NCBI RefSeq assembly: GCF_025822765.1
Contig: NZ_JACKUK010000041.1
Coordinates: 1-64,000 of the forward strand
Length of the DNA stretch: 64,000 nucleotides
Origin: Mycobacterium barrassiae
GTDB taxonomy: Bacteria; Actinomycetota; Actinomycetes; Mycobacteriales; Mycobacteriaceae
Reading direction: 5' to 3'
A model generated the notes under the pieces. The model saw only the letters and a list, made by a program, of their open reading frames with translations, was not told the origin of the DNA and searched no databases. Every line of letters begins with the position of its first letter. Position 1 is the stretch's first letter. Positions 14,535-58,073 of this stretch are shown in pieces. The translations under genes and the position numbers were made by a program.

Positions 14535-14540
14535 GGCGCG

Positions 14541-16496: not shown

Positions 16497-17477
<981 letters not shown>

Positions 17478-39079: not shown

Positions 39080-40039
39080 GTGAGAGTCTTGGTGACGGGT
39101 GGAGCAGGATACATTGGAGCACACGTAGTCAGGGCGCTGCAGCAGGCGGGGCATAACGTCGCCGCCCTCGACGACCTCTCCACCGGAAGTCGTAGCCGCC
39201 TCGCTTCCGACATTGCGCTGTTCGTTGGTTCTGTGCTCGATGACGGCTTCGTCGAATCGTCATTGCGTGCACATTCCGCGGAGGCCGTCGTGCACATCGC
39301 AGCAAAGAAGGCCGTGGAAGAGTCCATTGCCGATCCACTGAAGTACTACAACGAAAACGTAATCGGCATGCATAGGGTGCTGTCCGCAATGGTCGCCGCC
39401 GGAACAACGCGCATTCTGTTCTCCTCTAGCGCAGCGGTTTACGGAGTCGTTTCGGACAGTCCGGTGATCGAGACCTCGCCGACCGTTCCATCGTCGCCGT
39501 ACGGTTGGACGAAATTGATGGGCGAGCAGATGATTCGCGACGTCGCGGCGGCGCATCGGATCAGCTGGTCGGCGCTGCGATATTTCAATGTGGCCGGTAC
39601 CGCCGAACCGAGGATGGCCGACCGAGGCGAGAACAATTTGATTCCAAGGGTATTCAGGGCGATCACCTCGGGTGTGCGTCCCAAGATCTACGGCAATACC
39701 TATCCGACTCCAGACGGAACGTGCATCCGCGACTACGTCCATGTCGAGGACGTCGCGGATGCGCACGTAGCCGTCATCAACCATATGGTGACCACCGACT
39801 TAGCCGACACATATAACGTCGGTACCGGTACCGGCACTAGCGTCCTCGAGGTCATGACCGCGACACGACAGGTGACAGGCATCGAATTCTCGTGCGACAT
39901 CACCGCGCCGAGGCCTGGTGACCCCGCCCAAGTAGTTGCCGACCCGGGGCTGATACGTGACGAACTAGGTTGGGAATCAAGACATGATCTAGCCAGCGCC
40001 GTCGAGAGCGCTTGGCGCGCATGGTCAGATGCGGACTAG
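39080..40039 (+). CDS. galE: GalE-like UDP-sugar 4-epimerase
   Basis: A 319-residue extended SDR epimerase. The NAD-binding motif GGAGYIGAHVVRAL is at residues 7-20, the active-site Tyr and Lys are in YGWTKLMGE, and TCIRDYVHVEDVADAHV is typical of UDP-glucose 4-epimerases. It would supply UDP-galactose, or a related 4-epimer, to the glycosyltransferases of this locus. The GTG start has AGGAG 6 bases upstream. It is the first gene of the island. The exact sugar cannot be read from the sequence; other SDR epimerases that act on uronic acids or N-acetylhexosamines are possible. Confidence 0.8.
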   Translation: MRVLVTGGAGYIGAHVVRALQQAGHNVAALDDLSTGSRSRLASDIALFVGSVLDDGFVESSLRAHSAEAVVHIAAKKAVEESIADPLKYYNENVIGMHRVLSAMVAAGTTRILFSSSAAVYGVVSDSPVIETSPTVPSSPYGWTKLMGEQMIRDVAAAHRISWSALRYFNVAGTAEPRMADRGENNLIPRVFRAITSGVRPKIYGNTYPTPDGTCIRDYVHVEDVADAHVAVINHMVTTDLADTYNVGTGTGTSVLEVMTATRQVTGIEFSCDITAPRPGDPAQVVADPGLIRDELGWESRHDLASAVESAWRAWSDAD

Positions 40040-40125
40040 CTGAGCTTCCAAGAGGCGCTCCGCCAGCTCGCCGGCGCGCCTCACGTGCGCTTCGTCCATA
40101 CCCCTCCAAACGCGACGAACAGTGG

Positions 40126-41118
40126 TCAGGTCAGCGCGCCGGAGGTCAGCAACCGGAAGCGGGCGAACGACAGGTCGCTGCCAATGCCCAGCCTCGGCAG
40201 GGCTAGCGGATCGCTGTCGCGGTCGGCGAAGCCCTCGACGGTCGACAGCGCCCACCGCACGCCGCGGCGGCGCAGCGCCTGCTTGGCGCGGTCGTCGAAA
40301 TCCTGTACGCGGCCGTTGGGATAGGCGAAAACTCTTGGCGCGCGGCCGGTCTCCTCCTGCAGCGCATCGCAGGAGTCGTCAATCTCGCGCTGTACCTTCT
40401 CGTCCGGGCACCGCGCGAGGATCGGGTGGGTCACGGTGTGCGGGTACAGGGTGACCCGCCCGTCGGCAGCAAGCGCGCGGGCCTGCGACCAGGAGAGCAT
40501 CTCAAACGGCCCGGGATCGTTGTCGGCCTGCTGCCCGAGGGTGCCGATCAGCCACTCGGTCCGCTCGATCCGCTGGTTGTCGGGCAGTGCTTTGAGCCGA
40601 TTCACCGCCGCGGCGTACACCTTTCCGCGGCGGGCGGCGCTGCCGAGAGGGTGTGCGCCCAAGCCCAGGGTGGTCAGATCAACCTCGGTGTGTTCCGTGC
40701 GGGCGAACGCCAGCCACAACCGGTCGGGCCACAGCGTCTCACAGGTGCCCATCGGCCCGGTGGCCAAGAAAACTGCTGCCGGTAGCCCGAGGCTGCGCAG
40801 GATGGGCGCGGCCTGTGTGGCGAGGTTACGGGTTCCGTCGTCGAACGTCAGCGTTGCTGCCCGGTCCGGAAGAGTCCCCGTTTCAAGCTGCCCCAGCGCC
40901 TCCTCGAGCGGAAGGACCCGATAAACCTGTCGGACGTACTCGAGTTGCCGGCGAAAGGCGGTGGCATCGAGAACATGCCAGCATGGCGGTATCAACGTTG
41001 TGGGCTCGACACCGTGATACATCAGAATCGCCAGCTGACCTCGACGGTGCCGCCGCGCGATTGCCGGCACTCCAGTCGCGCACAGCAGCCGCGCCACCGC
41101 TTCTTTTGCCAACGTCAT
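40126..41118 (-). CDS. Polysaccharide deacetylase (NodB domain)
   Basis: A 330-residue carbohydrate esterase family 4-like protein. Motif 1 is LTFDDGTRN with Asp93 and Asp94, motif 2 is PHTVTHP (the HxxxH metal histidines), and motif 3 is FAYPNGR. The start at 41118 is chosen because GAAGGGG lies directly upstream; the frame extends 16 codons further. There is no clear signal peptide, so it may act in the cytoplasm on a lipid-linked intermediate, as some enzymes of this family do, or have an unusual export route. It is divergent from a GT4 gene. Confidence 0.82.
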   Translation of the reverse strand: MTLAKEAVARLLCATGVPAIARRHRRGQLAILMYHGVEPTTLIPPCWHVLDATAFRRQLEYVRQVYRVLPLEEALGQLETGTLPDRAATLTFDDGTRNLATQAAPILRSLGLPAAVFLATGPMGTCETLWPDRLWLAFARTEHTEVDLTTLGLGAHPLGSAARRGKVYAAAVNRLKALPDNQRIERTEWLIGTLGQQADNDPGPFEMLSWSQARALAADGRVTLYPHTVTHPILARCPDEKVQREIDDSCDALQEETGRAPRVFAYPNGRVQDFDDRAKQALRRRGVRWALSTVEGFADRDSDPLALPRLGIGSDLSFARFRLLTSGALT

Positions 41119-41231
41119 CCCCTTCGGCCAGAGATGTCGAAATCTGCAAAACATACCAAACGCCACCTGCGCACATACGCGTGCGATAGACAGGGATTTG
41201 GCGTATCCGCCATCCGGGGAGATGCAACCAG

Positions 41232-42458
41232 ATGACCCATGAACAGAGTTCGACGCCCGATTCCGACCTGCCGATCCGCGTGATGATGGTGCTCGACTCG
41301 TTCAGCTTCGGGGGCGCAGAGAACCTGGTCGCCGAACTGGGCCGGCACGCGTCTGCTTCACTGGATATCTCGGTCGCCAGCCTACAACCTGCTGGCCAGG
41401 GCAGTAACCAGCTGCTGGACCGCCTTACCGAGTCGGGCCTGAAACCGACGTTTCTGGGTATGCGCCGGCTGCTTGACCCGGTGGGCTTCATGCGGGTCGT
41501 TCGCGCGATTCGGCAGGCGCCCGTCGACGTCGTGCACGCGCATCTTGGCTACGCCGCGATCGTCGTTCCAATAGCCGCGCGCCTGGCCGGCAAGCCGGCC
41601 GTCGCCACCCTGCACGTCAATCCTCCGCACCGGCTGCGGGGTGGTGAGTGGCTCAAGGAGCGGCTGTCCATCCGGGTGCCCGCGCGTCTGGGGCGGCTTG
41701 TCCTGATCTCCCAGCACGCCCGCGAGGAGTTCGCCCAACGACACGGCCCGGCACGCGACACCTGGCGAGTGATCCCCAACGGCGTCGACACGACGAGCTA
41801 TGCGCCGCGGCCGAGGGCCCAATCGGTCGATGCCCCGGTGTGGGCGTGCGTCGCCGCGATGCGTCCGGACAAGAACCATGTCGGTCTGGTGCGGGCCTGG
41901 GCAGCCGTGGTGGCCGCACACCCGCGCGCGACCTTGCTCATCGTCGGGGACGGCCCGAGCCGGGAGGCCACAGAAGCCGCGATCGAAGAGCTCGGCCTGA
42001 TCGCCAACGTGCGCATGCTGGGACGCCGCGAGGACGTGGTCGACATCCTGCACGGCGTGGACGGGGTGGTATCGGCATCCATCGACGAGGCGCTGCCCAC
42101 GGCATTGATCGAAGCTGCCGCGTGCGGACTGCCAGTAGTGGCGGCCGACGCCGGCGGCACCCGCGAGATCGTGATCGATGGGGTTACCGGGCGGCTGGTG
42201 CCGATCAGCGACGACGAGGCGCTGACCGCGGCGCTACTGGACGTGATCGACCACCCGGAGCGAGCCGAGGAGTTCGGCAGGGCGGGACGCGATCTCATCG
42301 AGAACCGGTATGCGTTGTCGACATGGGTCGACAACCTGACGGACCTGTATGCCGAAGTGATTGCCGAGCGGGGGAAGCGCCGATACCCGCGGCGACGGTG
42401 CGCGGGGGTGGCGGGGATGACAAAACGCGATGGTCCGGGACGATCCTGCCCTACTTAG
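41232..42458 (+). CDS. GT4 glycosyltransferase
   Basis: A 408-residue GT-B enzyme. The N-terminal acceptor domain has MMVLDSFSFGGAENLVAELG (about 17-36), and the C-terminal donor domain has DEALPTALIEAAACGLP, the Glu-containing GT4 motif. It would transfer an activated sugar to a lipid-linked oligosaccharide on the cytoplasmic side. GGGGAG lies about 10 bases before the ATG. The last 25 residues are Arg-rich and look unstructured. Sugar and linkage cannot be deduced. It stands alone on its strand between the deacetylase and the lyase gene. Confidence 0.85.
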   Translation: MTHEQSSTPDSDLPIRVMMVLDSFSFGGAENLVAELGRHASASLDISVASLQPAGQGSNQLLDRLTESGLKPTFLGMRRLLDPVGFMRVVRAIRQAPVDVVHAHLGYAAIVVPIAARLAGKPAVATLHVNPPHRLRGGEWLKERLSIRVPARLGRLVLISQHAREEFAQRHGPARDTWRVIPNGVDTTSYAPRPRAQSVDAPVWACVAAMRPDKNHVGLVRAWAAVVAAHPRATLLIVGDGPSREATEAAIEELGLIANVRMLGRREDVVDILHGVDGVVSASIDEALPTALIEAAACGLPVVAADAGGTREIVIDGVTGRLVPISDDEALTAALLDVIDHPERAEEFGRAGRDLIENRYALSTWVDNLTDLYAEVIAERGKRRYPRRRCAGVAGMTKRDGPGRSCPT

Positions 42459-42487
42459 AGGATGACTCCCTCCGGCACGGCTCAGCG

Positions 42488-43426
42488 TCAAACCCATCCG
42501 CCCGGCGGTTTGACGACAGCCAACGGCCTGACTATTCGCGCCGATAAATCTGCGCGACCCCACTCGATGTTGGCGTGGTAAAGAACGGCCGGGTCATCCA
42601 CATTGTGCTGGTAGATCCCCCAATGGGGATATGCGAGGGGGCCGTCGTCGTTGTAGTAGCCGATTGCAGTGTCAACATCAACGATCCGTTTGCCGTCCAA
42701 CCATACATCCAGGTGACCGTCTCTACCAAGCAGGCCCGCTACCACCACATTGTGCGCGACGCCATCGGTGGGGCGACTCTTCGAATAGTGGATCACATTG
42801 CGGCTGGGGTCGTCGTCGGATCGTGTCGACACGATGAAATCGCCGTCCCGCAACTCGATGGCGAATAGTGGTGAGCGACCCGCTACGGTGTCCACGGAAT
42901 GCCATTGGTGAATGATGTGGTGGTAGGGACTGGGAATTTCGCCGTCGGCGTCGAACGGTAGGTGGTCGGGCCCGACCACGAAGGAGAATGAGGACCATAG
43001 GGTTTCGCCGGAATTGTATTTCTCACCTTTCGAAACGAGTTCAGATCGGCGATTATTATTCGCTTCATCACCACTCCAGCCGAAATCATTATTACGCACC
43101 TCAAACCGATAGACGTCGCGGGCTGGAATGGAAAAGGCATAGTCCTTTTCCACCGCTGATACGCTCATCGGCTGCGAATCAATGACCAAATTTTCCGTAG
43201 CATTACGCGGAAGCCCTGTGCCAGAATTCACACTGACCTCCGCAGGGGTCCCCATGGGAGGGTTGCTAGGCATTACAGTCGCGACAAGGGCGAGTGCGAA
43301 CACCCCTATCGTAGGGGCCAGCGCCCGACCAGCGAGGATTTTTCCCCTCACCCGCTTGATGGTAGTTCCAGTCTGGGAAATTGCCCAGACGGATTCGCGC
43401 AAGAATGGCAACGAGCGGTCATGCAA
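42488..43426 (-). CDS. Secreted polysaccharide lyase (heparin lyase I/PL20-like)
   Basis: A protein of up to 312 residues with an N-terminal hydrophobic export segment (about 34-52) and a concanavalin-like lyase domain. The pattern matches the Polysacc_lyase family: NNRRSELVSKG, then ETLWSSFSFVVGPDH, IIHQWHS (the Q-x-H motif), a WLDGKRIVDVD strand pair and YPHWGIYQ. Members cleave uronic-acid-containing polymers by beta-elimination. The first in-frame codon is a TTG at 43426; a GTG at 43354 would give a tidier signal peptide. It starts 8 bases after the dehydrogenase gene on the same strand, so the two form an operon. Confidence 0.78.
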   Translation of the reverse strand: MHDRSLPFLRESVWAISQTGTTIKRVRGKILAGRALAPTIGVFALALVATVMPSNPPMGTPAEVSVNSGTGLPRNATENLVIDSQPMSVSAVEKDYAFSIPARDVYRFEVRNNDFGWSGDEANNNRRSELVSKGEKYNSGETLWSSFSFVVGPDHLPFDADGEIPSPYHHIIHQWHSVDTVAGRSPLFAIELRDGDFIVSTRSDDDPSRNVIHYSKSRPTDGVAHNVVVAGLLGRDGHLDVWLDGKRIVDVDTAIGYYNDDGPLAYPHWGIYQHNVDDPAVLYHANIEWGRADLSARIVRPLAVVKPPGGWV

Positions 43427-43434
43427 CTGCTTGG

Positions 43435-44694
43435 CTACGCTAAGCGCTTGACGTCTACGGTTCGGACCGCTTTCAGCGAGTACTCAGCAGCTGTACCTCG
43501 GGTGTCGATTACCAAATCCCATTCACCACTCTCCGCTTCCGCTTGATCCACGAGAAGTTGCCGTATGAACGGTGAATTGGACAACACTCCTAGGTTCTGC
43601 CCCATGAGGTTCTCTGGCGCAACGTGTGGATCAAAAATCGACAACTGATATCCGGCCGTGATCAGCATGCGGGCCAGGTCGACATTCGGGCTTTCGCGTA
43701 AGTCGTCAGTATTGTCCTTAAAGGCGATCCCGACCATCAATACACGCGATCCATGGTTCAGCCCGCGGGTCGCGTACTCGAATATAAACGACTTGTGAGC
43801 TTCATTTGACGCGGTAAGAGAGTCGATGAGATGGGTGAATCCGCCCGACATCCGGGAGATGTGCTGCAACGCCCGAACGTCTTTCGGCAGGCATGACCCA
43901 CCGAAGGCGCCTCCTGGTCTGAGATAGAGCGGTGAGATATTCAGCTTGGTATCCGAGATAAAGATCTTATGAATTTCGGATGCACTGATGCCCAATTGGA
44001 TACACAAGCGCCCGATCTCGTTGGCAAAGGCCGTCTTGACCGCGTGGAATGTATTGTCGACGAACTTCGTGATCTCGCTCTCCCGGTACTTCACATAGAA
44101 GACAGGCGCATCGATGGTTTCATTGACCCTGTCGAGCACGACACAACGACCCCCAGTCGCTGTTCCAATCACGATCTTGGGAGGGTGGAAGAAATCCTCG
44201 ACAGCGGACGACTCGCGCAGGAATTCTGGGTTGTATACGAGCTCGATGCGTGAAGTCTCCTCGTCGAGCACACTTGTGATAATCGGCCGTATCAGTTCCT
44301 CGATGGTCCCCGGACGGATTGTCGACCGATACGCAACGGTGAGCTTGCTGCCCGGGTGTGCCTTCACTAGATCGGCTAGTTGGCGCGAGACTTCGGCGAT
44401 GTGGGTCATGTTGTGCGATCCGTCCGCTGCGCTCGGCGTTCCCACGCAAACGATGACGAGTTCGCACTCGGCGACTTCCGGGACGAGAGTTGTAGAGGCC
44501 GTGATCAACCCATCGGTGCGCGCGCGCGAAACCAGGTCGTCCACCCCCGGCTCGGTAATCGGTGAGCGACCGTCGAGAATCGCCTTCACCTTCGTCTCAT
44601 TCGGATCTATGCCGATCACGTCATGCCCCTGGCTTGCCAGGCACGCGGCAGCAGTGGTGCCGACGTACCCAAGGCCCAAGACGGCGATCTTCAC
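43435..44694 (-). CDS. GDP-mannose 6-dehydrogenase-like sugar-nucleotide dehydrogenase (AlgD family)
   Basis: A 419-residue UDPG/GDP-mannose dehydrogenase. The NAD motif GLGYVGTTAAACLASQGH is at residues 7-24. The catalytic Cys268 is in GGAFGGSCLPKDVRAL, and NPEFLRES, FHAVKTAFANEIG and FKDNTDDLRESPNVDLA all resemble AlgD more than UDP-glucose or UDP-ManNAc dehydrogenases. It would oxidise C6 of GDP-mannose to GDP-mannuronate. UDP-glucose cannot be excluded as substrate. It begins with GTG, preceded by GAGGGGA. About 200 bases separate it from the divergent glycosyltransferase gene. Confidence 0.82.
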   Translation of the reverse strand: MKIAVLGLGYVGTTAAACLASQGHDVIGIDPNETKVKAILDGRSPITEPGVDDLVSRARTDGLITASTTLVPEVAECELVIVCVGTPSAADGSHNMTHIAEVSRQLADLVKAHPGSKLTVAYRSTIRPGTIEELIRPIITSVLDEETSRIELVYNPEFLRESSAVEDFFHPPKIVIGTATGGRCVVLDRVNETIDAPVFYVKYRESEITKFVDNTFHAVKTAFANEIGRLCIQLGISASEIHKIFISDTKLNISPLYLRPGGAFGGSCLPKDVRALQHISRMSGGFTHLIDSLTASNEAHKSFIFEYATRGLNHGSRVLMVGIAFKDNTDDLRESPNVDLARMLITAGYQLSIFDPHVAPENLMGQNLGVLSNSPFIRQLLVDQAEAESGEWDLVIDTRGTAAEYSLKAVRTVDVKRLA

Positions 44695-44900
44695 GGCTCC
44701 CCCTCACCCAGGTCGCGTCGAGGATAGCGCCGGTCGTTTCCACCAAGGTGCCGTACGAGCAGAAAGGCGGTGTACGAGTCGGGTCTTGATCGTTTGACCA
44801 CAATCGAATTCGAAGCAATCATGACCACACCGGCCAATCGGGCGGGGTGACCGAGACTGTCACCTGATCGTCCAGCGGACCCAGCCTGAGAGGAGGCATC

Positions 44901-46214
44901 GTGGGCGACGGCCAATTGCCGAAAGTGATGGACTGCGAATCCGCACCGCAATCCCTGCGAATCGCGTTGGTCTACAGCCGCATTCCGTTCCCCATGATGC
45001 GGGGCGATCAGATGACCGTGGCGCACCTCATCAGCTTTCTTGCTCAGCGCGGCCACGCCGTCGACCTGTACACCCTAGCCGTCGACGGTCAGTTGGACGA
45101 AAAGCAGGCGCAGTGGTTGAAGCAAGCATGCCGCAAGATTCACATCTATCCTCAGCCTTGGTACGCGAAGCTGGCCGGGCTCACGCTCGGATCATTCTCT
45201 CTGTTGCCTCTCCAGGTGAGCATGTTCCGCAATCACAGCCTGAAGCGTGATCTTGCCCGGGCAATCGAATCCGGCAACTACGACATCGTGTACTGCTATT
45301 ACCCTCGCACGGCGCCGGCGATTCCCACCGCCGTGAAGACGATGCCGGCCACCGCGTCGTTCCTTGCGCTCCAACTGTCGCAGACGCTCAACACGAAACG
45401 GATGGCCGATAATGAGCGCAGTCTGCTGATGCGGTGGGTCTATCGCCTTGAGACCGTCGTGATGGGGCGATACGAGGCCAGAGTTTGGCAGGATTTCAAC
45501 AAGGTGGTCCTCATCGGACCTGCCGACGTCACGGCGATCAAGGAGCAATGTCGCAAACACGGTCAACCGGAAATCGACAACTGGATCTACGGAGCGCACG
45601 GTACCGACACCAGCAAGTTTGTCGCCGCTCGTCCGAACGAGGTCGTGCCGGGCCGCGTGATCTTTTCCGGGTCAATGCTTTACCCGCCAAACATCCAGGC
45701 AGTCCTCTGGTTCGTCCAGAACGTGTGGCCGACAGTACGCGCTGAAGTACCTGATGCGACCTTCGTGATCCAAGGCCGTGATCCAGCACCGGCGTTGCTG
45801 AAGTTGGACGGAAGAAAAGGCATTTGGGTGACCGGCACGGTACCTGACGTGGGTGTGCTCATTCGATCGGCACAGGTCTGCGTCAACCCGATGCGCGCCG
45901 CCGGTGGCATGCAGAACAAGTTGATCGAGTACATGGCATCTGGCAAAGCCGTAGTCGCCTCGTCCGTGGCGAACGAGGGTATCCGGGCGCCCCAGGAGAC
46001 GGTGGTCATCGCCGATGATCCAGATCCGTTCGCTGATGCTGTGATTCGACTATTGAGAGATCCCGAGTCAGCTGAGAGGTTGGGCACTGCAGCACGCCAG
46101 TATGTGCTTTCCGAATGGACCTGGGAGAAGCACTTCTTGGATCTGGAACTCGCGTTCTACGCAGCGTGCGCTGAACCGCCGGACCTGCTTGACACAAGAA
46201 GCAGCAATCTATGA
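44901..46214 (+). CDS. GT4-like glycosyltransferase
   Basis: A 437-residue GT-B protein. RIALVYSRIPFPMMRGDQMTV marks the N-terminal domain and MRAAGGMQNKLIEYMASGKAVVAS the donor domain, resembling the group of exopolysaccharide glycosyltransferases that use the QNK/R-E motif. AGGAGG lies 4 bases before the GTG at 44901; an ATG 15 codons later would give a shorter alternative. The next glycosyltransferase follows after 70 bases on the same strand. Donor and acceptor unknown. Its codon third positions look less GC-biased than in the flanking core genes. Confidence 0.83.
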   Translation: MGDGQLPKVMDCESAPQSLRIALVYSRIPFPMMRGDQMTVAHLISFLAQRGHAVDLYTLAVDGQLDEKQAQWLKQACRKIHIYPQPWYAKLAGLTLGSFSLLPLQVSMFRNHSLKRDLARAIESGNYDIVYCYYPRTAPAIPTAVKTMPATASFLALQLSQTLNTKRMADNERSLLMRWVYRLETVVMGRYEARVWQDFNKVVLIGPADVTAIKEQCRKHGQPEIDNWIYGAHGTDTSKFVAARPNEVVPGRVIFSGSMLYPPNIQAVLWFVQNVWPTVRAEVPDATFVIQGRDPAPALLKLDGRKGIWVTGTVPDVGVLIRSAQVCVNPMRAAGGMQNKLIEYMASGKAVVASSVANEGIRAPQETVVIADDPDPFADAVIRLLRDPESAERLGTAARQYVLSEWTWEKHFLDLELAFYAACAEPPDLLDTRSSNL

Positions 46215-46284
46215 GCACGACATCCTAGAAGCACGCTGCACACTGTCGGCGGCGGACAGACGGACCACGAAAGGCGTCGGCACA

Positions 46285-47490
46285 ATGTCCAAGCGACCCA
46301 TCCTACTGGTGGAATTCTCGCCGTCCGGTGGGCTATTCCAGTTCGCCATGCAACTTGGAGACGCGCTCGCGGCCACGGGGGAGCAGGTTGAGTTACTAAC
46401 CGGTCCCGAACCCGAGCTGTCCGCGACCCAACCCGGGTTCACAGTGCGTCCGGTATTGCCGACGTGGCACCCTAAGGACGGTGCGGATGGTGCACCGACA
46501 TCACGGGTGCTTCGCGTCACTCGAAGGGGTTGGCGGGCTGCGAAGTTGATGCTCGCCTGGGTGGTCCTGGGCTGGTATCTGGTCCGGATTCGACCTCTCG
46601 CGGTGCTTTGGTCGCATTGGCGATTCAGCTTCGAGCCGCTGTTCGTCGTCTTGATCGCTGCCGTTCTTCGCAACGTGACGCTGGGAATAGTCGCACACGA
46701 GCCACTCCCACGTTCGGACGCGAAGAACACCAGTCGACCGAAATCCGGGAGGTTCTTCTCGTTCGCCTTCGGTGCGGCGTGGCGTCGAATGGATGTCGCC
46801 TTCACGCTGGGGCCCCAAACCAGGAATCTGGTGCTGGAGCACTGGCGTCCTCGCGGGGAGGTGGTAGTGATCCCGCACGGCGACGAGAGAGTGCTGGGCG
46901 TAGGGCCAGCCGCTGCCCGAGTCGCCGATACCGCTCCGGTCGCGTTGTTCTTCGGTACGTGGTCCACCCGCAAAGGAATCCATGTGCTTCTTGAAGCTTT
47001 TGCGCTGGTGCTCAAGAGCCTGCCCGAAGCTCGCCTGATCCTCGCTGGAGCGGTCGACGCCGCAGTTGACCTTGATGCTTTGCTGGCCCGCGCCGATGAG
47101 ATCGGAAACATCGACGCTCGCCCTGGTTACGTTGCGGTCGATGAAGTCTCAAGCCTCTTTTCCAGCGTGCGCCTCGTCGTGACGCCCTATCTCCAGGCTG
47201 CCCAAAGTGGTGTCGCACATCTGGCGTACACCTTCGCCCGACCGGTGGTGGCGACTGCGATCGGGGACATTCCGCAGGTGGTCAAAGACGGCAAGACGGG
47301 TCTCTTGGTGCGCCCGAATAATCGTGAGGAACTGGCCGACGCGATGCTGGTGCTTCTGCGTGACGCGCAGCGCGCGGACGACATGGGCGCTGCCGGGCAG
47401 CGGAGCGTCGCCGGAGCTTGGGAAACGGCCGCGATGCGGGTGTCCGAGGCACTCGGCCGCTGTCGCCCATCGGTTCCGGAATCGAAATAG
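46285..47490 (+). CDS. GT4-like glycosyltransferase
   Basis: A 401-residue protein. It begins MSKRPILLVEFSPSGGLFQFA, has a hydrophobic patch (about 93-115, around KLMLAWVVLGWYLVRIRP) that may associate with the membrane, and a donor domain with TWSTRKGIHVLLEAFALV, ATPYLQAAQSGVAHLAYTFA-like and RPVVATAIGDIPQVV segments. The usual EALA Glu motif is replaced by SGVAHLAYTFARP, so it is a divergent GT4-type enzyme. The ATG at 46285 is chosen because the frame upstream overlaps the previous gene and has no homology. GAAAGG lies about 10 bases upstream. Confidence 0.78.
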   Translation: MSKRPILLVEFSPSGGLFQFAMQLGDALAATGEQVELLTGPEPELSATQPGFTVRPVLPTWHPKDGADGAPTSRVLRVTRRGWRAAKLMLAWVVLGWYLVRIRPLAVLWSHWRFSFEPLFVVLIAAVLRNVTLGIVAHEPLPRSDAKNTSRPKSGRFFSFAFGAAWRRMDVAFTLGPQTRNLVLEHWRPRGEVVVIPHGDERVLGVGPAAARVADTAPVALFFGTWSTRKGIHVLLEAFALVLKSLPEARLILAGAVDAAVDLDALLARADEIGNIDARPGYVAVDEVSSLFSSVRLVVTPYLQAAQSGVAHLAYTFARPVVATAIGDIPQVVKDGKTGLLVRPNNREELADAMLVLLRDAQRADDMGAAGQRSVAGAWETAAMRVSEALGRCRPSVPESK

Positions 47491-50089: not shown

Positions 50090-50785
50090 ATGATCAAGCG
50101 GCGCTTCGTCATTCTTCTTTTCGCTCTGATCGGCGCTGGTCTCGGGGCAGCAGTGGGAGCGCTTGCGGCGCCGACGTCGCAGCGCTACACGGCGTCGGTC
50201 AACATTGCGCTGACTCCCCGACCGGATTTGACGACCGCGGAATCATCCAGTTTCTGGGAAGTTCTGACCCGCGGCCAAGTCAGTCGAACGGCAGCTATCG
50301 TCTACGAAGACTCTCGCTGGCTAACATCAGCGGCCGAGGCCGCAAATGTCCGGCCGAGCGAACTTACCCTCAGCGCCAATGCGTTACCGGAGACCTCGGC
50401 ACTTTCCGTCAGTGTGACAGCGAACTCGTCGGCTGCCGCCGAGGCGGCGCTGAGCGACGTGTTGACTACTGCGTCCGCGGAAGTAGCGTCGGTGACCGCA
50501 CCATTCCTGGCGAAGGCGCTGTCGCCGACGGAGGGCAGTGCGCGTCTGGTTCCCGTTCCCGGCAGGGCACAGTTCGCGGCGGCAGGTGCACTCGCAGGGC
50601 TTCTGGGCGGCGGTAGTGTTGGATGGTATTTCCTGCGGCGACGCGGTGGTTCGCGGCTCGCCGACGATCAGCCTACTGACATCGTCGAGACCGACGCCGT
50701 CGACCAAGGCTATGCCGCCCACCAACATGATCCCCTCGGCCAGAATGATGCTGCCGTCGGGAATCGCGCTAAACATTCGGCATGA
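50090..50785 (+). CDS. Wzz-like chain-length/co-polymerase protein without kinase domain
   Basis: A 231-residue protein with two transmembrane helices (about 6-27 and 161-182) around an extracytoplasmic domain of about 130 residues. QRYTASVNIALTPRPD after the first helix and a Pro-containing LVPVPGRAQF before the second are typical of Wzz/PCP proteins, which set polymer length. After the second helix there is only a hydrophilic tail of about 50 residues, with no Walker motifs, so no tyrosine kinase is attached. The ATG at 50090 is chosen for the topology. The stop overlaps the polymerase start as ATGA. Confidence 0.78.
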   Translation: MIKRRFVILLFALIGAGLGAAVGALAAPTSQRYTASVNIALTPRPDLTTAESSSFWEVLTRGQVSRTAAIVYEDSRWLTSAAEAANVRPSELTLSANALPETSALSVSVTANSSAAAEAALSDVLTTASAEVASVTAPFLAKALSPTEGSARLVPVPGRAQFAAAGALAGLLGGGSVGWYFLRRRGGSRLADDQPTDIVETDAVDQGYAAHQHDPLGQNDAAVGNRAKHSA

Positions 50786-52794
50786 CGAGTTTGAACCGGA
50801 CCGCTGCGCCCGCGAACGAACTTCCCGGGTTCATCCTGGCGGCAGCGGTCGCGACTTTCGGTGCACTTGTCATTTTGGGACCGCGGAACCCGGTGCTTTT
50901 GCTTGCGGCGCCGATCGGCGGGATCGGATTGATCTTCGCGGCTCGGCGTCCGCTTCTGGCGGTGACCATCATGGTTGTCGTCGAGGTCACCAATGTGTCC
51001 GGGGTGCTGGCCCCACGCTTGGGAATCCCGTTTTTTCCAGCATCCTTGCTGATGGGCCTGATGGCAGTCGCCTTCGCGCTACGCGATCCAAAAGCCAGGA
51101 GTCGACTCAACGGGTGGACGATGGCGTGCGCCGGCTTCCTGGTCGTGTTTCTGGCCACCCAGGCGGTAGCCACGATCGGCAGCGTGGATATGTCGGCATC
51201 ACTGACCACCATGCGCAGGGCAATAATCGACTGTCTTTTCGTCATGTTGATGTTGCTACTCGTTCAGCTGACCGCACGGCCATGGGTGCTAGCCGTAGCC
51301 TTCGTCGTGCCGCTGGCTTTGCTGAGTTCACTGACTGTCATCAATGAGCTGATCTTCGGCGGCACCATGCCGTTCGGCGGTTTCGCCGCCGTGGCTGCTG
51401 TGACGGCAGCGGACCAGAATTTCGCTACGCTGCGCTACGGTGGTCCGTTGCCGGACTCGAACTTCTGGGGTCGTTACCTGGTCATGGCATTACCCCTGGC
51501 GGCTGCTCTACTGACCAGGGCGCTGCGCTCCGGGCGGCGGTACGCAGTGGCGATGTGGATGCCGGTGCTCGCAGCCCTTTTCGCTGGAATCTATCTGACC
51601 CAGTCCCGCGGGACGTACGCGACCGCCGGCATCGCGATGGCCGTGTGGTTTCTCGCCTGCGAGCGATCGGTTCGACGGCGCGGCATGGCGGTGCTGCCGC
51701 TGGCCCTACTGGCTTTCGCGGTGCCGGGCGTCGGAGATCGGCTGGTACAGACAGTCGTTGACCTTTCGCAGGCCCAGGAGTATTACAACATCGACTCTTC
51801 GACACTGAACCGAGTCGCGGCCGTCGAGATGGCTTGGAAGATGTTCGAGGACCGCCCGTATTTCGGATTCGGTCCCGGCTCATTCGTCAGTGAGACGATC
51901 AATTACGCCGGGGGGGTGTCCACCGCTACCCGGGGTTCGGCCGGCGCCCCGCACAACATGTACGCCGAATTTGCCGGCGAGTCCGGCATTTTCGGGTTAC
52001 TTGGCTTGGCGGTGCTCATCCTGGGATTTCTGACCGTGGTGGTACTGCGGATCATCGCAAAGCCCGCCTCGAGCGACCGGGTGCTGGCCGCGGCGGTGTG
52101 CGCGGCGATCATCGCATATTCAGTAGCCAGCATCGCGTTGCACATGGCGTATTTCCGCGCCTTCGGAGTGGTGCTGGCCCTAGCGGCAGGACTTGCGCCG
52201 GCGTTGCCGTTGTCGGTTGATGTGGTGCCCCGATTCCTGCGTGGTGTCGCTGTCTGGCTACTGGCGGGGATACTCGGATGCTTCGCATTCTGGCTGTGCC
52301 TATCGGTGAGCAGCTCCCCGAGCGTCACCGCGACCCAACGGGCGACGTTGGTCCCGGAAGGGCCTATCGACGGCTGGTACGCGTATGCGCTGGACATCCG
52401 CTCTCGGATGGAGCTTCTGCCCACATTCGCGACCATATTGCAGGACACAGCCTCGCCGGTCAGCGTCACCGCCGACCCGGTGCGGGGAGTGCTGAAGCTC
52501 ACCACTACCGCAGACACAGCGAGTGCCGCCCGCGACGAGATCCAACTCGCCGCCGCACATGCCGGATCAGCGTTGAATGCCTCAATCGGTTACCTGCAAT
52601 ACTCTTTGCGGACGGTCGGTGGCATGCAGATCGTCCCTTCCCAGAAGCGCGCGCCATTCGCTCCGGTGGTGGCCGGCGCCGTCGGCGCCAGCACCGGACT
52701 GGGGGCTGGGCTGGCACTGTCCCGCATGTTGGCAAGGCTGCCAAAGTACACCCCGTCCGGCCGATCGCCAACCGAGGATCTGGTAAAGGTGTGA
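50782..52794 (+). CDS. Wzy/O-antigen-ligase-like polymerase with C-terminal Wzz-like module
   Basis: A 670-residue membrane protein. The first 480 residues contain about 10-12 helices and the Wzy_C/ligase region: QSRGTY near 274, DRPYFGFGPGSF (358-369) and HNMYAEFAGESGIFG (391-405). After a helix at about 486-509 comes a hydrophilic domain of about 115 residues and a last helix (about 626-650) preceded by IVPSQKRAPF, which repeats the Wzz layout of the preceding gene. It would join lipid-linked repeat units outside the membrane. The ATG overlaps the Wzz-like stop, so the pair is coupled. Confidence 0.82.
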   Translation: MTSLNRTAAPANELPGFILAAAVATFGALVILGPRNPVLLLAAPIGGIGLIFAARRPLLAVTIMVVVEVTNVSGVLAPRLGIPFFPASLLMGLMAVAFALRDPKARSRLNGWTMACAGFLVVFLATQAVATIGSVDMSASLTTMRRAIIDCLFVMLMLLLVQLTARPWVLAVAFVVPLALLSSLTVINELIFGGTMPFGGFAAVAAVTAADQNFATLRYGGPLPDSNFWGRYLVMALPLAAALLTRALRSGRRYAVAMWMPVLAALFAGIYLTQSRGTYATAGIAMAVWFLACERSVRRRGMAVLPLALLAFAVPGVGDRLVQTVVDLSQAQEYYNIDSSTLNRVAAVEMAWKMFEDRPYFGFGPGSFVSETINYAGGVSTATRGSAGAPHNMYAEFAGESGIFGLLGLAVLILGFLTVVVLRIIAKPASSDRVLAAAVCAAIIAYSVASIALHMAYFRAFGVVLALAAGLAPALPLSVDVVPRFLRGVAVWLLAGILGCFAFWLCLSVSSSPSVTATQRATLVPEGPIDGWYAYALDIRSRMELLPTFATILQDTASPVSVTADPVRGVLKLTTTADTASAARDEIQLAAAHAGSALNASIGYLQYSLRTVGGMQIVPSQKRAPFAPVVAGAVGASTGLGAGLALSRMLARLPKYTPSGRSPTEDLVKV

Positions 52795-52874
52795 CGCGCA
52801 AGTCCATCGTGCCGACCGTCGAATCCTGGTAGTCCGGAGCGCCGAAATGACGAAGTCACCTACGCACCGAGTGC

Positions 52875-53618
52875 TCAGCGCTTCACTGCCCGTGCGCACA
52901 CTTCCACTGCGAAGCGTGGGTCGTGATGATTCAACTGTCGTCTTGTGAACTCGTGGGCCGCGAGGCCTCGAATCTCACCTGCAGCAGTCAGCGAGTTCCC
53001 GTAGGCCCGCGTAACGATGTTCTCGTCTTCGAAAGCGCCGGCAAGTGCGAACCGAAGTCCCTCCTGCGTGAAGCGAAATAGTTCGCCGTACTCCGGACAG
53101 CACATGCTCACCTGCGGCACTGCAATCAGCACGATCCCACCCGGTCGGAGAATGCGGTGCAGCTCTGCAATCGCCTTCTCGAAGCCAGGGATTACGTGCA
53201 GCACGTGAGTGCAGATTATGCAGTCGAATTGGTCGCTGGGGATGTCGTTTGCCGTTGTAAGATCGGCTTGTATCGTGGTATGTGGATTACCCGCCTCAAG
53301 GTTCAGTATGTCAATTTTCGTGATCCGAGAATCTTCGCCAAACCTAGACGTATAGTCATTTGCGGAAAATTCGAGACAATTGCCCCGGATATCTTCGGAG
53401 AACTCGGGAAGAAAAAGCTCCTCAAGGTAGTACCGGGCAATTTCCTGGCCACGATCTCGCCCCCACCAAAAACTTAATGGCTGCACACCAACTGACAGGC
53501 GTACTCTCGCATAGGGCGAGACAAGCCCACGAAATATCTTCTTGCCGGAGTCTTTGACAGCTCGCGGAGATTTATCGAGGAGACGCTTTGCGATCTGTTT
53601 CACTTGGTTGAATCCCAT
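52875..53618 (-). CDS. Class I SAM-dependent methyltransferase
   Basis: A 247-residue protein of the Methyltransf_11 type. The region FDCIICTHVLHVIPGFEKAI, LHRILRPGGIVLIAVP is clear (motifs for the second half of the fold). Motif I is unusual: LEFSANDYTSRFG stands where a Gly-rich loop is expected, so SAM binding is less certain. A C-terminal part with CCPEYGELFRFT follows. Probably methylates a sugar or uronic acid of the polymer. It lies 170 bases downstream of the flippase gene on the same strand and converges on the polymerase gene. Confidence 0.78.
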   Translation of the reverse strand: MGFNQVKQIAKRLLDKSPRAVKDSGKKIFRGLVSPYARVRLSVGVQPLSFWWGRDRGQEIARYYLEELFLPEFSEDIRGNCLEFSANDYTSRFGEDSRITKIDILNLEAGNPHTTIQADLTTANDIPSDQFDCIICTHVLHVIPGFEKAIAELHRILRPGGIVLIAVPQVSMCCPEYGELFRFTQEGLRFALAGAFEDENIVTRAYGNSLTAAGEIRGLAAHEFTRRQLNHHDPRFAVEVCARAVKR

Positions 53619-53788
53619 CTATCAAGTCGACTTGCCAAGGGGCCCATCTGTCAAGCTGTCAGATGCGCGCACGAGAACCAACTGAATTTGCCAATTAGCC
53701 TCGTTTTCTCCTCCCCATCATGGGCCGTTACCGAATTCAGATATTGATCCTCGCAATCGCGAAGCCACGTAGGCGCCGTGCCGTCCAT

Positions 53789-55306
53789 CTATGCGCCAGC
53801 CTTCCGCTGCCCGGAAATCGCCTTTTTCACAATCGCGCCAAGTTCTCTGATTGTCTCGCGCGCGAAAAGCGACAGCATGATGGATGCTCCGAGAACGCCC
53901 GCACAGGCGGTCAAGGCCAGACTCAATAAGCCGGGCGGCAGAAAAATGTTCGGCCAAACTCCTAGGGCAACGATTCCTAGCGCGGCGATGAACCCGGGCC
54001 GGAGCGCCCGAATCGCCGGCCCGAGCGTCAGGCCGACCAAGCGTGCAGCGAGAATCGTCAGAAGCGTGCCGAAAATGAATTCGCTAACGACGAGAACTCC
54101 CGCTATGTAGGTGAGGCCGCGGCTTGACACCGCCACCATTGCCGACAAAATCAACGCTGTCTCGGGAACAAGCACGAACAGCAGTGTGCGCGGGCTGCCT
54201 AGTGCCGGAAATACATCCGACACACCATATCGCACCGAGCCCAAACCCAGGGCGACGCCTACGAGAACCATCGGTGCAGCCGCAGGTAGCCAATTCTCGC
54301 CGAAGACAAGCACTATTATGTTTTCGGCAGACAGGGCAATCAAAGTTCCAGTCGAAAATCCCCACAATGTGATCACCCGCAACGAACGTACGACGGCCGA
54401 CCGCAATGTTGCGGCGTCAACGGCTCGAGCGGCTGAATATGCTGGAAACACGACGGAGGAAAATACCCAATACACATTGTCGAGCAACAACTGTGGGACT
54501 TTGTAGGCGATTGTGTAAAAGCCGAGCGCGGTTGCGCCCAGCGCGCCCAGAACGACGAAGTAGTCACCGTAGCCTGCGAGCGCGTAGACGATAGCGACAC
54601 CGAACATGTTGACCGAATACGCCAGGATCGACTTCAGGATTGGAAGGTCGAATACGAATCTGGGCAGGAAGCGAAGCAGGCCCCACGCCACGGGTACGCG
54701 AACGATCTCACCTGCGACGTAGCCGACTGCGAGTGCCCAAACGTCGAAGCCAGCCACCGCGAGCGAAATGGAAACGGCGGCGCGCACCGCGGCTGGCACC
54801 AGCTCTATCCAGATGCGACGTCGGAAATCCAGGTTCCGCTCGAGCACCTTTGTCGGCACCAGGGCACACGCTGTGACGATCACCGATAGTGACAACAGTC
54901 TGAATACGTTCGCTTGATCGGAGACTCCGAAAAAGTTTGCGAGAAACGGGGCAAAGATCACCCCGACGACACCGAAGACAACGGCAAGCACGACGTTCAA
55001 CGTCCAGGCGACTTGGACGCGGCGTCCGATACCTTCGCCCTGCTCGTAGATTACCGAGGCGCCAACACCAAGATCCGCCAACACCTGCAGGTATGCGATG
55101 TAAGCCAATCCAGCCGCGATGACACCGAACGCCTCGGGCGTCAGCACCCTAGCCAGTACAAGCGTGCTACCAAAGGTGATCGCCTTTCCGCTGCCGAAGC
55201 TGAGCAGGGCCCAAAGGAAACCACGCACGCTGCGCCCAGTCAGGCTCGGCGCAGCGGCGGATTCGTAGTCGCCGTCCGAATCCTTACCGTCGGGCAGGCG
55301 CATCAC
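53789..55306 (-). CDS. Wzx-like polysaccharide flippase (MOP superfamily)
   Basis: A protein of 505 residues (504 if the ATG at 55303 is used instead of the GTG at 55306) with 12-14 hydrophobic helices. VRGFLWALLSFGSGKAITFGS, LARVLTPEAFGVIAAG and the following helix LADLGVGASVIYEQG match the polysacc_synt/WzxC-AmsL group of flippases. It would move the lipid-linked repeat unit across the membrane to the Wzy-like polymerase encoded nearby. It lies 105 bases downstream of the BcsB-like gene on the same strand, probably in one unit bcsB-like, wzx, methyltransferase. Confidence 0.86.
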   Translation of the reverse strand: MMRLPDGKDSDGDYESAAAPSLTGRSVRGFLWALLSFGSGKAITFGSTLVLARVLTPEAFGVIAAGLAYIAYLQVLADLGVGASVIYEQGEGIGRRVQVAWTLNVVLAVVFGVVGVIFAPFLANFFGVSDQANVFRLLSLSVIVTACALVPTKVLERNLDFRRRIWIELVPAAVRAAVSISLAVAGFDVWALAVGYVAGEIVRVPVAWGLLRFLPRFVFDLPILKSILAYSVNMFGVAIVYALAGYGDYFVVLGALGATALGFYTIAYKVPQLLLDNVYWVFSSVVFPAYSAARAVDAATLRSAVVRSLRVITLWGFSTGTLIALSAENIIVLVFGENWLPAAAPMVLVGVALGLGSVRYGVSDVFPALGSPRTLLFVLVPETALILSAMVAVSSRGLTYIAGVLVVSEFIFGTLLTILAARLVGLTLGPAIRALRPGFIAALGIVALGVWPNIFLPPGLLSLALTACAGVLGASIMLSLFARETIRELGAIVKKAISGQRKAGA

Positions 55307-55411
55307 GAATAACCAGCACTCAACGACCGGTCCGGCGACCGGCGCGTCAGGCTCGCTGAGTTGAGCATGCTGTCAACGTGGCGTCGATTACCGTGCCATA
55401 GGGTTTCCTCG

Positions 55412-57460
55412 TCAGGACTGCACGTCATCATCGCCCGCCGGCTGGCCGCTGCCCGACCGCGACCTTCGACCGCCCATCCAGAATGCAACGATGCCGACCG
55501 CGACCGCTCCGCCGACCCCGACCAAAGCCCACCACGGCGAGATGCCATCGGAACTGCCAGAGGACTCCTGCGCCGTCGACGACATCGATGGCCCGTAGAC
55601 ACTGAAAGCTCCGCTATCTGGAACTATCTCCGGCTCTCGGCCGGCAACAGCGACCAGCGCATTTCCACGCAGGCTCGACCATCGCGCGGGGTCGCTGGCC
55701 AGCCACCTCAGCAACTCGTCGAGTTGCGCGGCCGCGCCATTGGACGTCGCTATCAGCAGGGAGCGTTGGCCGTCGAACACTGTTTGCAGGGATCCGAACT
55801 GAATCCCTGGGTCAAGGCTGAGAGTCGTGTCCGCCGTATTCTCGCCACCATCAATCGCACCCGTCAGTTTCAGGCGCCCGTCCTCGGAGCTCACCGGCAG
55901 CGAAATCGACGACTCTGTCCAGCCGTCCGCACTGATGAGGACAGCCGGATCGTCGCTGTTCATCGCCTGCCCAAGAGATGACACGTCAAACGAGAGCGGC
56001 ACCGCGCTGAGCCGCTGGAGTCCCACCGCAATCTGCGTCGCGCGGGCAGTGTCGGCGAACCTGTTCGCACCAATGCCGACCAGCATTCGTGGCATCAAAG
56101 CCTGTGGCAGGGATTGAAAACCGGACGGGATCGGCGGCTGGGCTGGAGCTTTCTCCACCACGGTGTTGCCACTGATCTCCAGCCTAATCGCTCTGAAATC
56201 GCCACAGTATCCGGTTTCGCCACTGGTCTCGACTCTCACGTCCAGGTTGGTGAAACGCTGCACGAGGCGGTCGGGAACCTCCACCCACTGATCGATTACA
56301 CCGTTTGATTCAGTCGGCCAGGATCCGACGATTTCTCCTCCGACGGAGGCCGTCATCTGTGAACCCAAGGCGGCTGGAACCGGCGTGTACGTCCCCAACA
56401 AATGCACCCGGATCCCCTGCGTGGGATGACCGAACCGGGTCTGGTCCAATCCGATGCTCACCCTCGGAGCCACACCCACTGCAGAAAGTTTCGACGCGCC
56501 CAACTCGGTCAGCGTCGCGAGGTTGCCTGGCAGTGGGGGAATAACGGACGGTAGATCGCCCGGAATCACCTTCGTACTCAGCGCCATTTTCACAGAGCCG
56601 TGGGTAAGCAGCCGGGCGTTATTGGTGAGCTTGTCCGCCGGCCCGGAGATGAGTAGGTCAGGCGGTCCCGCACCTACTAACGCAACACCTTCGTCCGGAC
56701 CCTCTTTGATGATGATTCGGCGTTCAAATGGTAGCGAGGGGCTGCCGGGAATGGTCGCGTCGTCGGCCAGCGGCACGAGGACTACCTGCGGGTTCTGGCT
56801 CCGATAGCGTGCCGACAGGGCGGCTGCGAGCTGCACCGCCGCTTCAGATTCGTCTTCTGATGGCGTAGCAGGCACCCCGATTGTCAGGGTGCGCAACAGG
56901 GGCGGAAGAAAGTCGGCGACCGTGGTCGGGGCGAATGCCTCTCCGGCGTAACTGACCGAACCATTGACGAATCTGACCGGGTTCTCTGTATCTAGACAGT
57001 ATCCGTCTTCGGCGAGCGCGGTCAGTGTCAGATTCACAGATGCAGACTCGTCGACAATCTGGACACCATTAAGGGGAATGACGAGCGGGGCAAGGTCTGT
57101 CAGTGGCAACCCGATCTGTCCGATGAGACGGTCATCCTGCGTAACGGTCAAGGTTCCGGACCTCATATTGAACGGAAGATCGACGGTGACATTCAGCGAT
57201 GTCGGGTATAAGCCCGCTGGCACGGGGATGTACAAGGAGAGGGTGGCCGTGGTCCCGTAGAACACCAGCATGCCATCCTCACCCAGATCGTTCAGCGGCA
57301 GAGTAAGGGCAGCGCCGGGATCAGGGGCCGGTGGTGGCTGGGCGTTGACCACTGGCGCCGAACAGATGGGAATTGCAATGACCGCGGTGAGCGCTGCGAG
57401 CCGTCCGAGCAATCGGGCACCCAGGGCCGGAATCGTGGGCAGTTGAGTTCTCCTCGTCAT
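55412..57460 (-). CDS. BcsB-like periplasmic protein with C-terminal membrane anchor
   Basis: A 682-residue exported protein with a signal peptide (about 1-40, ending near VNAQ), an extracytoplasmic part of about 590 residues and one C-terminal helix (about 643-665) followed by an Arg/Ser-rich tail. The repeated beta-rich pattern (LSLYIPVPAGLYPTSLNVTV, NGVQIVDESASVNLTL, and later a second copy ending in RAIRLEISG) resembles BcsB, the subunit that guides a nascent glucan out of the cellulose synthase BcsA. No BcsA-like GT2 is present in the window. The ATG at 57460 gives a normal signal peptide. Family call is from pattern only. Confidence 0.65.
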   Translation of the reverse strand: MTRRTQLPTIPALGARLLGRLAALTAVIAIPICSAPVVNAQPPPAPDPGAALTLPLNDLGEDGMLVFYGTTATLSLYIPVPAGLYPTSLNVTVDLPFNMRSGTLTVTQDDRLIGQIGLPLTDLAPLVIPLNGVQIVDESASVNLTLTALAEDGYCLDTENPVRFVNGSVSYAGEAFAPTTVADFLPPLLRTLTIGVPATPSEDESEAAVQLAAALSARYRSQNPQVVLVPLADDATIPGSPSLPFERRIIIKEGPDEGVALVGAGPPDLLISGPADKLTNNARLLTHGSVKMALSTKVIPGDLPSVIPPLPGNLATLTELGASKLSAVGVAPRVSIGLDQTRFGHPTQGIRVHLLGTYTPVPAALGSQMTASVGGEIVGSWPTESNGVIDQWVEVPDRLVQRFTNLDVRVETSGETGYCGDFRAIRLEISGNTVVEKAPAQPPIPSGFQSLPQALMPRMLVGIGANRFADTARATQIAVGLQRLSAVPLSFDVSSLGQAMNSDDPAVLISADGWTESSISLPVSSEDGRLKLTGAIDGGENTADTTLSLDPGIQFGSLQTVFDGQRSLLIATSNGAAAQLDELLRWLASDPARWSSLRGNALVAVAGREPEIVPDSGAFSVYGPSMSSTAQESSGSSDGISPWWALVGVGGAVAVGIVAFWMGGRRSRSGSGQPAGDDDVQS

Positions 57461-57736
57461 CGCATGACGCCAGAAACGTCGCCGGAGGCACTTTACAAGA
57501 ATTTTCAAGAATTGCCGTGCGATCGTGATTCGCCGCAAAGCCAATCGTCACTATTGGAACTATTGGACGACGCTAGCGCCCTTCGAACGAGTTATGACCC
57601 TTATCTGCTACCACCGGGTCTCGTTCACACGTAGTAATGTCACGCGAATCCGACGTCGGCCCGGACGGCAGGACTTTGGCCGATGTCGGGTCGTCGACCA
57701 TCTCAAGAAAAACGCCGCGCGCCGCCTTGTCGGCTC
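57461..57736. other. Intergenic stretch at the right edge of the island
   Basis: No gene with a recognisable product. It is visibly AT-richer than the flanks in its left part. It should contain the promoter of the BcsB-like gene on the minus strand. Short frames were not convincing. Confidence 0.5.
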
Positions 57737-57952
57737 ATGATGCCGACCCTGGACTTCCGCCTCGACATTTACTCATCCCCTGGGTTCGGGACCCATCGCC
57801 GACGGCCCCCTGGCCGAACTGGTATGCGGGCGTCATCGAACTGGTGGTCCGTCTACTGGTGCTAGTAGGGTTGTTCACGCGAATCGGGCGTCACTCGGTT
57901 CCGGGCAATGGCCATCGTCGTCTACTTCACCGGGCATCAGCCAGTCATAGGA
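57737..57952 (+). pseudogene. Frameshifted, internally deleted doxX copy
   Basis: Three pieces in two frames resemble the intact DoxX encoded at 58074. The first, LDFRLDIYSSPGF, matches LDARLASYSSPFL. The second, in another frame, PNWYAGVIELVVRLLVLVGL, matches PMWWAGLLEFVLGILITLGL. The third, back in the first frame, AMAIVVYFTGHQP, matches QMAVAYFWMHWP. The segment equivalent to the first helix is missing. So this is a dead paralogue or the remains of a duplication. Confidence 0.7.
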
Positions 57953-58059
57953 GACCGCGCACTATTACGACGTGTGAAGAGCTCTGAGCAAAGAGCCGGT
58001 GGCGATTGCGCCGCCGGCCCTTTGGGCATTCAGCTGTGAAAATCCTGTCCGCCGGCGCG

Positions 58060-58065: not shown

Positions 58066-58073
58066 GGAATCAC

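What the first reader, a model, noticed from the sequence alone, without database searches (positions are those of the whole stretch)
39080..57960. A Wzx/Wzy-type polysaccharide locus inserted between glnA1 and glnE of a mycobacterium
The core gene order is continuous on both sides, yet about 18.5 kb of glycan genes lie between two nitrogen genes that are neighbours in M. tuberculosis. The set (sugar-nucleotide enzymes, four GT4 transferases, flippase, polymerase, chain-length protein, lyase, deacetylase, methyltransferases, BcsB-like protein) has the logic of a capsule or exopolysaccharide locus. Mycobacterial envelope glycans that I know of (arabinogalactan, LAM, alpha-glucan, glycopeptidolipid sugars) are not made by Wzx/Wzy systems, so this may be an undescribed mycobacterial polymer. 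GC content falls in places to about 47% in a 60-base sample, against about 72% in glnA1.
Basis: partly seen in the sequence, partly recalled or inferred. Interest (0 to 1): 0.88.

Follow-up and report, generated by a model that had tools for sequence, protein, structure and literature searches.

The report
Transferred mycobacterial polysaccharide locus, fused polymerase
A mycobacterium has recently gained, between two nitrogen genes, a set of genes that probably builds and exports a sugar polymer, using a polymerase that seems to carry its own built-in length-control domain.

Summary
A 19.2 kb insert (window 38776-57983) lies between glnA1 and glnE; in the genome closest by glnE (96%) the site is empty. 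It encodes a MOP flippase (Wzx), a Wzy-family polymerase, a Wzz-like co-polymerase, four GT4 transferases, GalE, a UDP-sugar dehydrogenase, a lyase, a deacetylase, two methyltransferases and a BcsB-fold protein. M. lehmannii carries the same cassette at the same site at about 96-100% DNA identity, while flanks are mostly 77-90% identical: a recent transfer between species. Wzy relatives occur in 44 of 396 sampled genomes of the genus, in mosaic loci at several sites; my paper searches listed no description of them.

Two features stand out. The polymerase has a C-terminal Wzz/PCP-like domain (44 of 44 aligned homologs; profile comparison and fold agree; Pfam missed it in 6 of 6). A BcsB-fold protein, normally cellulose synthase's partner, lies in 18 of 53 named Wzy loci. 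The initiating phosphoglycosyltransferase is not in the cassette; the genome has two, both also in the relative without the cassette. Model: a portable repeat-unit and polymerase cassette uses resident initiation genes to make an acidic heteropolysaccharide. Product, chemistry and expression are untested.

The parts
37340..38776 (+). glnA1, left flank (not part of the insert)
   Evidence: Gln-synt_C 457 bits; 95% identical in G039
38776..57983 (.). insert: about 19.2 kb present here and in M. lehmannii, absent from G039
   Evidence: blastn junctions against G039 and M. lehmannii; identity bins
39080..40039 (+). UDP-glucose 4-epimerase (GalE)
   Evidence: TIGR01179 330.7 bits, cut-off 262.3; Epimerase
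40126..41166 (-). polysaccharide deacetylase
   Evidence: PF01522 77 bits, cut-off 23.1
41232..42458 (+). GT4 glycosyltransferase a
   Evidence: PF00534 119.5 bits
42488..43426 (-). polysaccharide lyase with an N-terminal hydrophobic segment
   Evidence: PF14099 59.5 bits, cut-off 29.9; hydrophobic segment read by eye
43435..44694 (-). nucleotide-sugar dehydrogenase (probably UDP-glucose to UDP-glucuronate)
   Evidence: TIGR03026 362.6 bits, cut-off 189.8
44901..46214 (+). GT4 glycosyltransferase b
   Evidence: PF13692 93.6 bits; TIGR03087 233.5 bits, under its cut-off of 316.65
46285..47490 (+). GT4 glycosyltransferase c (mechanical ORF starts at 46102; likely start 46285)
   Evidence: PF13692 84 bits; start codon
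47860..49113 (+). GT4 glycosyltransferase d
   Evidence: PF00534 112.8 bits
49110..49976 (-). FkbM-type methyltransferase; missing from the M. lehmannii copy
   Evidence: PF05050 66.5 bits; gap in the comparison
50090..50785 (+). Wzz-like polysaccharide co-polymerase (mechanical ORF starts at 49952; likely start 50090); overlaps the Wzy start by ATGA
   Evidence: PF02706 below cut-off; profile match to the Wzy C-terminal domain; junction
50782..52794 (+). Wzy-family polymerase with a fused C-terminal PCP-like domain
52219..52755 (+). the fused co-polymerase (PCP/Wzz-like) domain of the polymerase, about residues 480-658: helix, alpha/beta domain, helix
52875..53618 (-). class I methyltransferase
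   Evidence: PF08241 43.9 bits
53789..55306 (-). Wzx, MOP-family flippase
   Evidence: PF13440 197.1 bits, cut-off 23
55412..57544 (-). BcsB-fold protein with a C-terminal helix at 671-691, probably membrane-spanning
   Evidence: Foldseek best 22 rows are all BcsB or cellulose-synthase-complex entries, best E 3.8e-29; Pfam BcsB below cut-off; helix in the model
57999..58583 (+). DoxX-family gene, part of the empty site
   Evidence: PF07681 55.7 bits; present in G039
58584..59756 (-). luciferase-like monooxygenase, part of the empty site
   Evidence: PF00296 161.3 bits; 97% identical over 291 residues in G039
60109..63075 (-). glnE, right flank
   Evidence: PF03710 350.2 bits

Best explanation
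A horizontally acquired Wzx/Wzy-type polysaccharide cassette. Resident phosphoglycosyltransferases (two elsewhere in the genome) start a lipid-linked repeat unit; the four GT4 enzymes extend it, possibly to about five sugars, with galactose and a uronic acid supplied by GalE and the dehydrogenase; methyltransferases and the deacetylase decorate it; Wzx flips it; the Wzy-PCP fusion, with the separate Wzz, polymerises it and sets chain length; the BcsB-fold protein receives or guides the chain outside the plasma membrane; the lyase trims uronate-containing chains. Shown by computation: the gene set, the insertion, the transfer, the fused PCP-like domain and the BcsB fold. Inferred: sugar composition, repeat length, order of steps, the role of each resident gene, and that the product reaches the surface.
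For: Family calls. Polymerase fold and fused PCP-like domain; domain present in 44 of 44 aligned homologs (window and 43 of the 53 named loci), Mycobacterium to Pseudonocardia. BcsB fold. Wzz and Wzy overlap by ATGA (100) and recur together: the family grouping puts Wzy in 42 and Wzz in 40 of 53 named loci. Empty site in G039. M. lehmannii copy about 96-100% identical in DNA against mostly 77-90% outside; glnE of the two is 83% identical in protein. PGTs in own genome; the one at C34 stands with a GAF protein, prenyl diphosphate synthase, FAD oxidoreductase and BcsB (51, 53); the same module is in G039 without the cassette, and most of it lies beside a Wzy locus in L072.
Confidence: 0.8

Rival explanations
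1. The Wzy-family protein is a ligase (WaaL/PglL-like) that moves a finished glycan onto a lipid, protein or wall acceptor, so the locus makes a glycoconjugate rather than a free polymer.
Against: A fused PCP-like domain and an overlapping wzz gene point to chain-length control. PF04932 holds both polymerases and ligases (recalled), so family and fold do not decide.
Confidence: 0.15
2. The BcsB-fold gene belongs to a separate cellulose-like or other system and sits beside the Wzx/Wzy genes by chance or by general clustering of glycan genes.
For: BcsB relatives occur in 235 of 396 genomes, 195 of these without Wzy; in this genome another BcsB-like gene lies next to a GT2 gene.
Against: 18 of 53 named Wzy loci have BcsB within the DNA held, up to 10 kb a side; at least 21 of 44 Wzy genomes have it within 15 kb of Wzy (read by hand from a cut list); presence 40 of 44 against 195 of 352 (Fisher p 2e-6, not corrected for relatedness). 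No GT2 family hit among the insert's ORFs.
Confidence: 0.3
3. The cassette in this genome is old at this site and was lost by the near relatives, not recently transferred.
For: Wzy relatives are spread over the genus and its kin, and several branches of the tree hold only Mycobacterium.
Against: Cassette identity with M. lehmannii far exceeds that of the flanks, with sharp edges at both ends; the genome closest by glnE has an empty site. Ancient presence of such loci elsewhere in the genus is not excluded.
Confidence: 0.05

Closest known systems
Wzx/Wzy-dependent exopolysaccharide clusters of actinomycetes (wps-1 to wps-3 and imp of Actinoplanes missouriensis, PMC13390465; passages seen)
   Same: Flippase, Wzy-like protein, Wzz-like protein and decorating enzymes in one cluster; the wps-1 deletion there gave distorted sporangia
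   Different: No form of the word fusion or fused is in its text and the listing counts BcsB 0 times; sulfotransferases are a feature there
WaaL O-antigen ligase / Wzy polymerase fold (7tpg)
   Different: Here a C-terminal PCP-like domain is added, and no lipid A acceptor is expected in mycobacteria (recalled)
[quoted passage not shown]
   Different: Fused to the polymerase and shorter, without room for the long helical part of Wzz; no kinase domain in the ORF
BcsB of the bacterial cellulose synthase
   Same: Whole-length fold match, best E 3.8e-29 over 643 columns
   Different: Encoded with Wzx/Wzy genes and without a GT2 synthase in the insert; about 14% identity

Membership tests
Wzx/Wzy-dependent polysaccharide pathway | MOP-family flippase | tested here: met
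   PF13440 197.1 bits, cut-off 23
Wzx/Wzy-dependent polysaccharide pathway | Wzy-family integral membrane polymerase | tested here: met
   PF04932 69.8 bits, cut-off 31.7; fold. Family and fold do not separate polymerase from ligase
Wzx/Wzy-dependent polysaccharide pathway | polysaccharide co-polymerase | tested here: met
   fused domain by profile and fold and separate wzz (Pfam below cut-off)
Wzx/Wzy-dependent polysaccharide pathway | initiating polyprenyl-phosphate sugar transferase | tested here: inconclusive
   none in the insert; two elsewhere in the genome, which one serves is unknown
Wzx/Wzy-dependent polysaccharide pathway | repeat-unit glycosyltransferases and sugar-nucleotide enzymes | tested here: met
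   four GT4, GalE, nucleotide-sugar dehydrogenase
Wzx/Wzy-dependent polysaccharide pathway | polymeric product made from lipid-linked repeats | not testable with these tools
   needs chemistry
PCP (Wzz) family, C-terminal domain of Wzy | two transmembrane helices flanking an alpha/beta base domain | tested here: met
PCP (Wzz) family, C-terminal domain of Wzy | sequence match to the Pfam Wzz profile | tested here: not met
   0 of 6 C-terminal segments hit PF02706 at E up to 1; so it is called PCP-like by fold and profile-profile match, not filed as a Pfam Wzz member
BcsB family | BcsB fold over the whole protein | tested here: met
   best 22 Foldseek rows are BcsB or cellulose-synthase-complex entries; model pLDDT 68
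BcsB family | curated Pfam BcsB score | tested here: not met
   18.3 bits, cut-off 21; 7 of 20 aligned relatives hit at E up to 0.01
Cellulose synthase system | BcsA-type GT2 synthase beside BcsB | tested here: not met
   no GT2 family among the hits of the insert's 14 ORFs; so not filed as a cellulose synthase locus

The most novel reading that the evidence does not exclude
Mycobacteria and relatives use a distinct polymer-export machine: a polymerase with a covalently attached co-polymerase works under a BcsB crown, which takes the place of the Wza-type conduit of Gram-negative bacteria in carrying the chain towards the mycomembrane; the cassettes are swapped between species like capsule loci.
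Probability: 0.3. Interest if true: 0.82.

Novelty: new variant of a known kind. Interest (0 to 1): 0.62.

Why it matters
To my knowledge (recalled) how polymers cross the mycobacterial outer membrane is open, and the well-known envelope glycans of the genus are not made by Wzx/Wzy systems. Here is a defined gene set, with an empty-site relative as a natural control. A polymerase fused to its co-polymerase would make the geometry of Wzy-Wzz action directly testable, since contact and stoichiometry are fixed in one chain. Exchange of a whole cassette between species at one site suggests switching of a surface polymer in mycobacteria.

Tried and rejected

Dropped before counts: genomes without both genes on one contig (16 of the 118); its 103 include G041, which came from the handle searches. 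Of the 53 named loci, 10 were left out of the Wzy alignment (L058, L076, L078, L080, L081, L089, L094, L098, L105, L107); the Wzz alignment holds the window and 25 of 40 grouped members. G044 is a MAG with two glnE genes and its cluster beside glnE is not counted as certain. Some named loci are cut by contig ends, so counts of BcsB and PGT in them are lower bounds. One search scored three candidates a genome and its match rows are cut; the 40 of 44 and 21 of 44 were read off the printed lists by hand.

Papers: no whole text was read. Passages seen: PMC6364259, PMC13390465, PMC7831098, PMC4594306, PMC12004945, PMC12220298, PMC7112194, PMC10030265 (outline 84, passages 102). The rest were seen as search listings.

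Full report
WHAT IS THERE. Between glnA1 (37340-38776) and glnE (60109-63075) the insert holds fourteen open reading frames of glycan type on both strands. Pfam and NCBIfam name, above cut-off, a GalE epimerase, a nucleotide-sugar dehydrogenase, four GT4 transferases, a polysaccharide lyase, a deacetylase, an FkbM and a class I methyltransferase, a MOP flippase and a Wzy_C protein; Wzz and BcsB are below cut-off. The genes are not one operon: orientation changes several times. The wzz stop and wzy start overlap as ATGA.

INSERTION AND TRANSFER. In G039, the closest genome by glnE among those searched (96%), window 38775 and 57984 are 77 bases apart, so 19.2 kb is extra here. DoxX and the luciferase-like gene belong to the empty site. 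glnA1-glnE spacing is usually short: 86 of 103 genomes under 8 kb, 17 of 103 at 8 kb or more, so the interval varies somewhat in general. M. lehmannii (L057; G300) carries the same cassette at the same site. In 500-base bins identity is about 96-100% inside and mostly 77-90% outside, with edges near 38.8 kb and 58.1 kb; the lower bins at 49.0-50.0 kb are where the FkbM gene is missing from M. lehmannii. In protein, glnE is 83% identical, RDD 79% and glnA1 92%, against 95.6-99.7% for 12 of the 13 shared cassette genes; Wzz is 88%, over an ORF with a doubtful start. The simplest reading is recent transfer of the whole cassette between species, perhaps by recombination in the flanks; no mobile element was seen. 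I did not measure genome-wide identity. G018 (M. pinniadriaticum, L075) has a different Wzx/Wzy cluster in the same interval, with wzy in the other orientation relative to glnE; a MAG (G044) may be another. In most Wzy genomes the locus is elsewhere: of 37 with both gln genes on one contig, 3 have it here.

DISTRIBUTION. A Wzy relative was found in 44 of 396 sampled genomes of the genus at E up to 1e-10, and in 53 named loci, mostly Mycobacterium/Mycolicibacterium with Williamsia, Gordonia, Smaragdicoccus and Pseudonocardia. Gene content is mosaic: families of Wzz, two GT4s and Wzy recur, while others change. PGT genes were found in 31 of the 53 loci and BcsB in 18 of 53 (held flanks vary in length).

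BcsB. The model (pLDDT 68) matches BcsB over its length; the 22 best rows are all BcsB or cellulose-synthase-complex entries. BcsB relatives occur in 235 of 396 genomes, so the family serves other loci too: 40 of 44 Wzy genomes and 195 of 352 others have one (relatedness not corrected). This genome has at least four BcsB-like genes: in the insert, at C34 beside a PGT module, and two at C36, one beside a GT2 gene and one beside another flippase and GT4 genes.

INITIATION. No PGT lies in the insert. The genome has two. At C34 the order is GAF protein, PGT, cis-prenyl diphosphate synthase, FAD oxidoreductase, BcsB. G039, without the cassette, has both PGTs (90% and 80% identical), and M. lehmannii has two GAF-PGT pairs, 78% and 64% identical to the C34 PGT. 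In L072 the FAD oxidoreductase, prenyl synthase, BcsB and a PGT stand next to Wzz-Wzy. In a hand-picked set, PGTs were in 13 of 13 Wzy-positive and 15 of 19 Wzy-negative genomes. I infer that a portable repeat-unit/polymerase cassette plugs into resident initiation genes; the step is not shown.

PRODUCT. GalE, the dehydrogenase, a lyase of a family acting on uronate polymers (recalled) and two methyltransferases suggest an acidic, methylated heteropolysaccharide; four GT4s plus a PGT would allow a repeat of about five sugars. The FkbM gene missing from the M. lehmannii copy suggests that the two species differ in one decoration.

VERDICT.

Noticed in passing
L151 (own genome C34) 7335-13980: GAF protein, PGT, cis-prenyl diphosphate synthase, FAD oxidoreductase (NF005547, 696 bits) and BcsB in a row: perhaps a dedicated carrier-lipid and initiation module, also in G039 and G124.
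   Followed up: partly
L158 (own genome C36) 3221-16822: A second glycan region: GT2 next to a BcsB-like gene, and another BcsB with a MOP flippase and GT4 genes.
   Followed up: partly
L160 8733-14916: BcsB relative followed by a sulfatase and an FGE-type sulfatase-modifying enzyme. L161, L163 and L151 (1883-4234) hold a gene near BcsB with the same best blast match as the sulfatase; those were not run in Pfam.
   Followed up: partly
L062 9353-12013: In one MAG Wzz and Wzy read as a single open frame (886 residues), so the polymerase would have PCP-like domains at both ends; could be real or an assembly fault.
   Followed up: partly
L140 about 7206-7284: In the empty site of G039 a unit of about 24 bases that includes the end of glnA1 is repeated about three times.
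   Followed up: no
family f5, e.g. L058:3859-4878: A group of proteins of about 340 residues in 37 of 53 named Wzy loci, absent from the window's cluster; the one member tested has no Pfam or NCBIfam match.
   Followed up: partly
L077: A record titled Kitasatospora arboriphila carries a locus with nearly the gene order of Williamsia muralis; probable mislabelling or contamination.
   Followed up: no
G044 contigs C86 and C142: A MAG with two different glnE genes, one beside a Wzy cluster; mixed bin or duplication.
   Followed up: no
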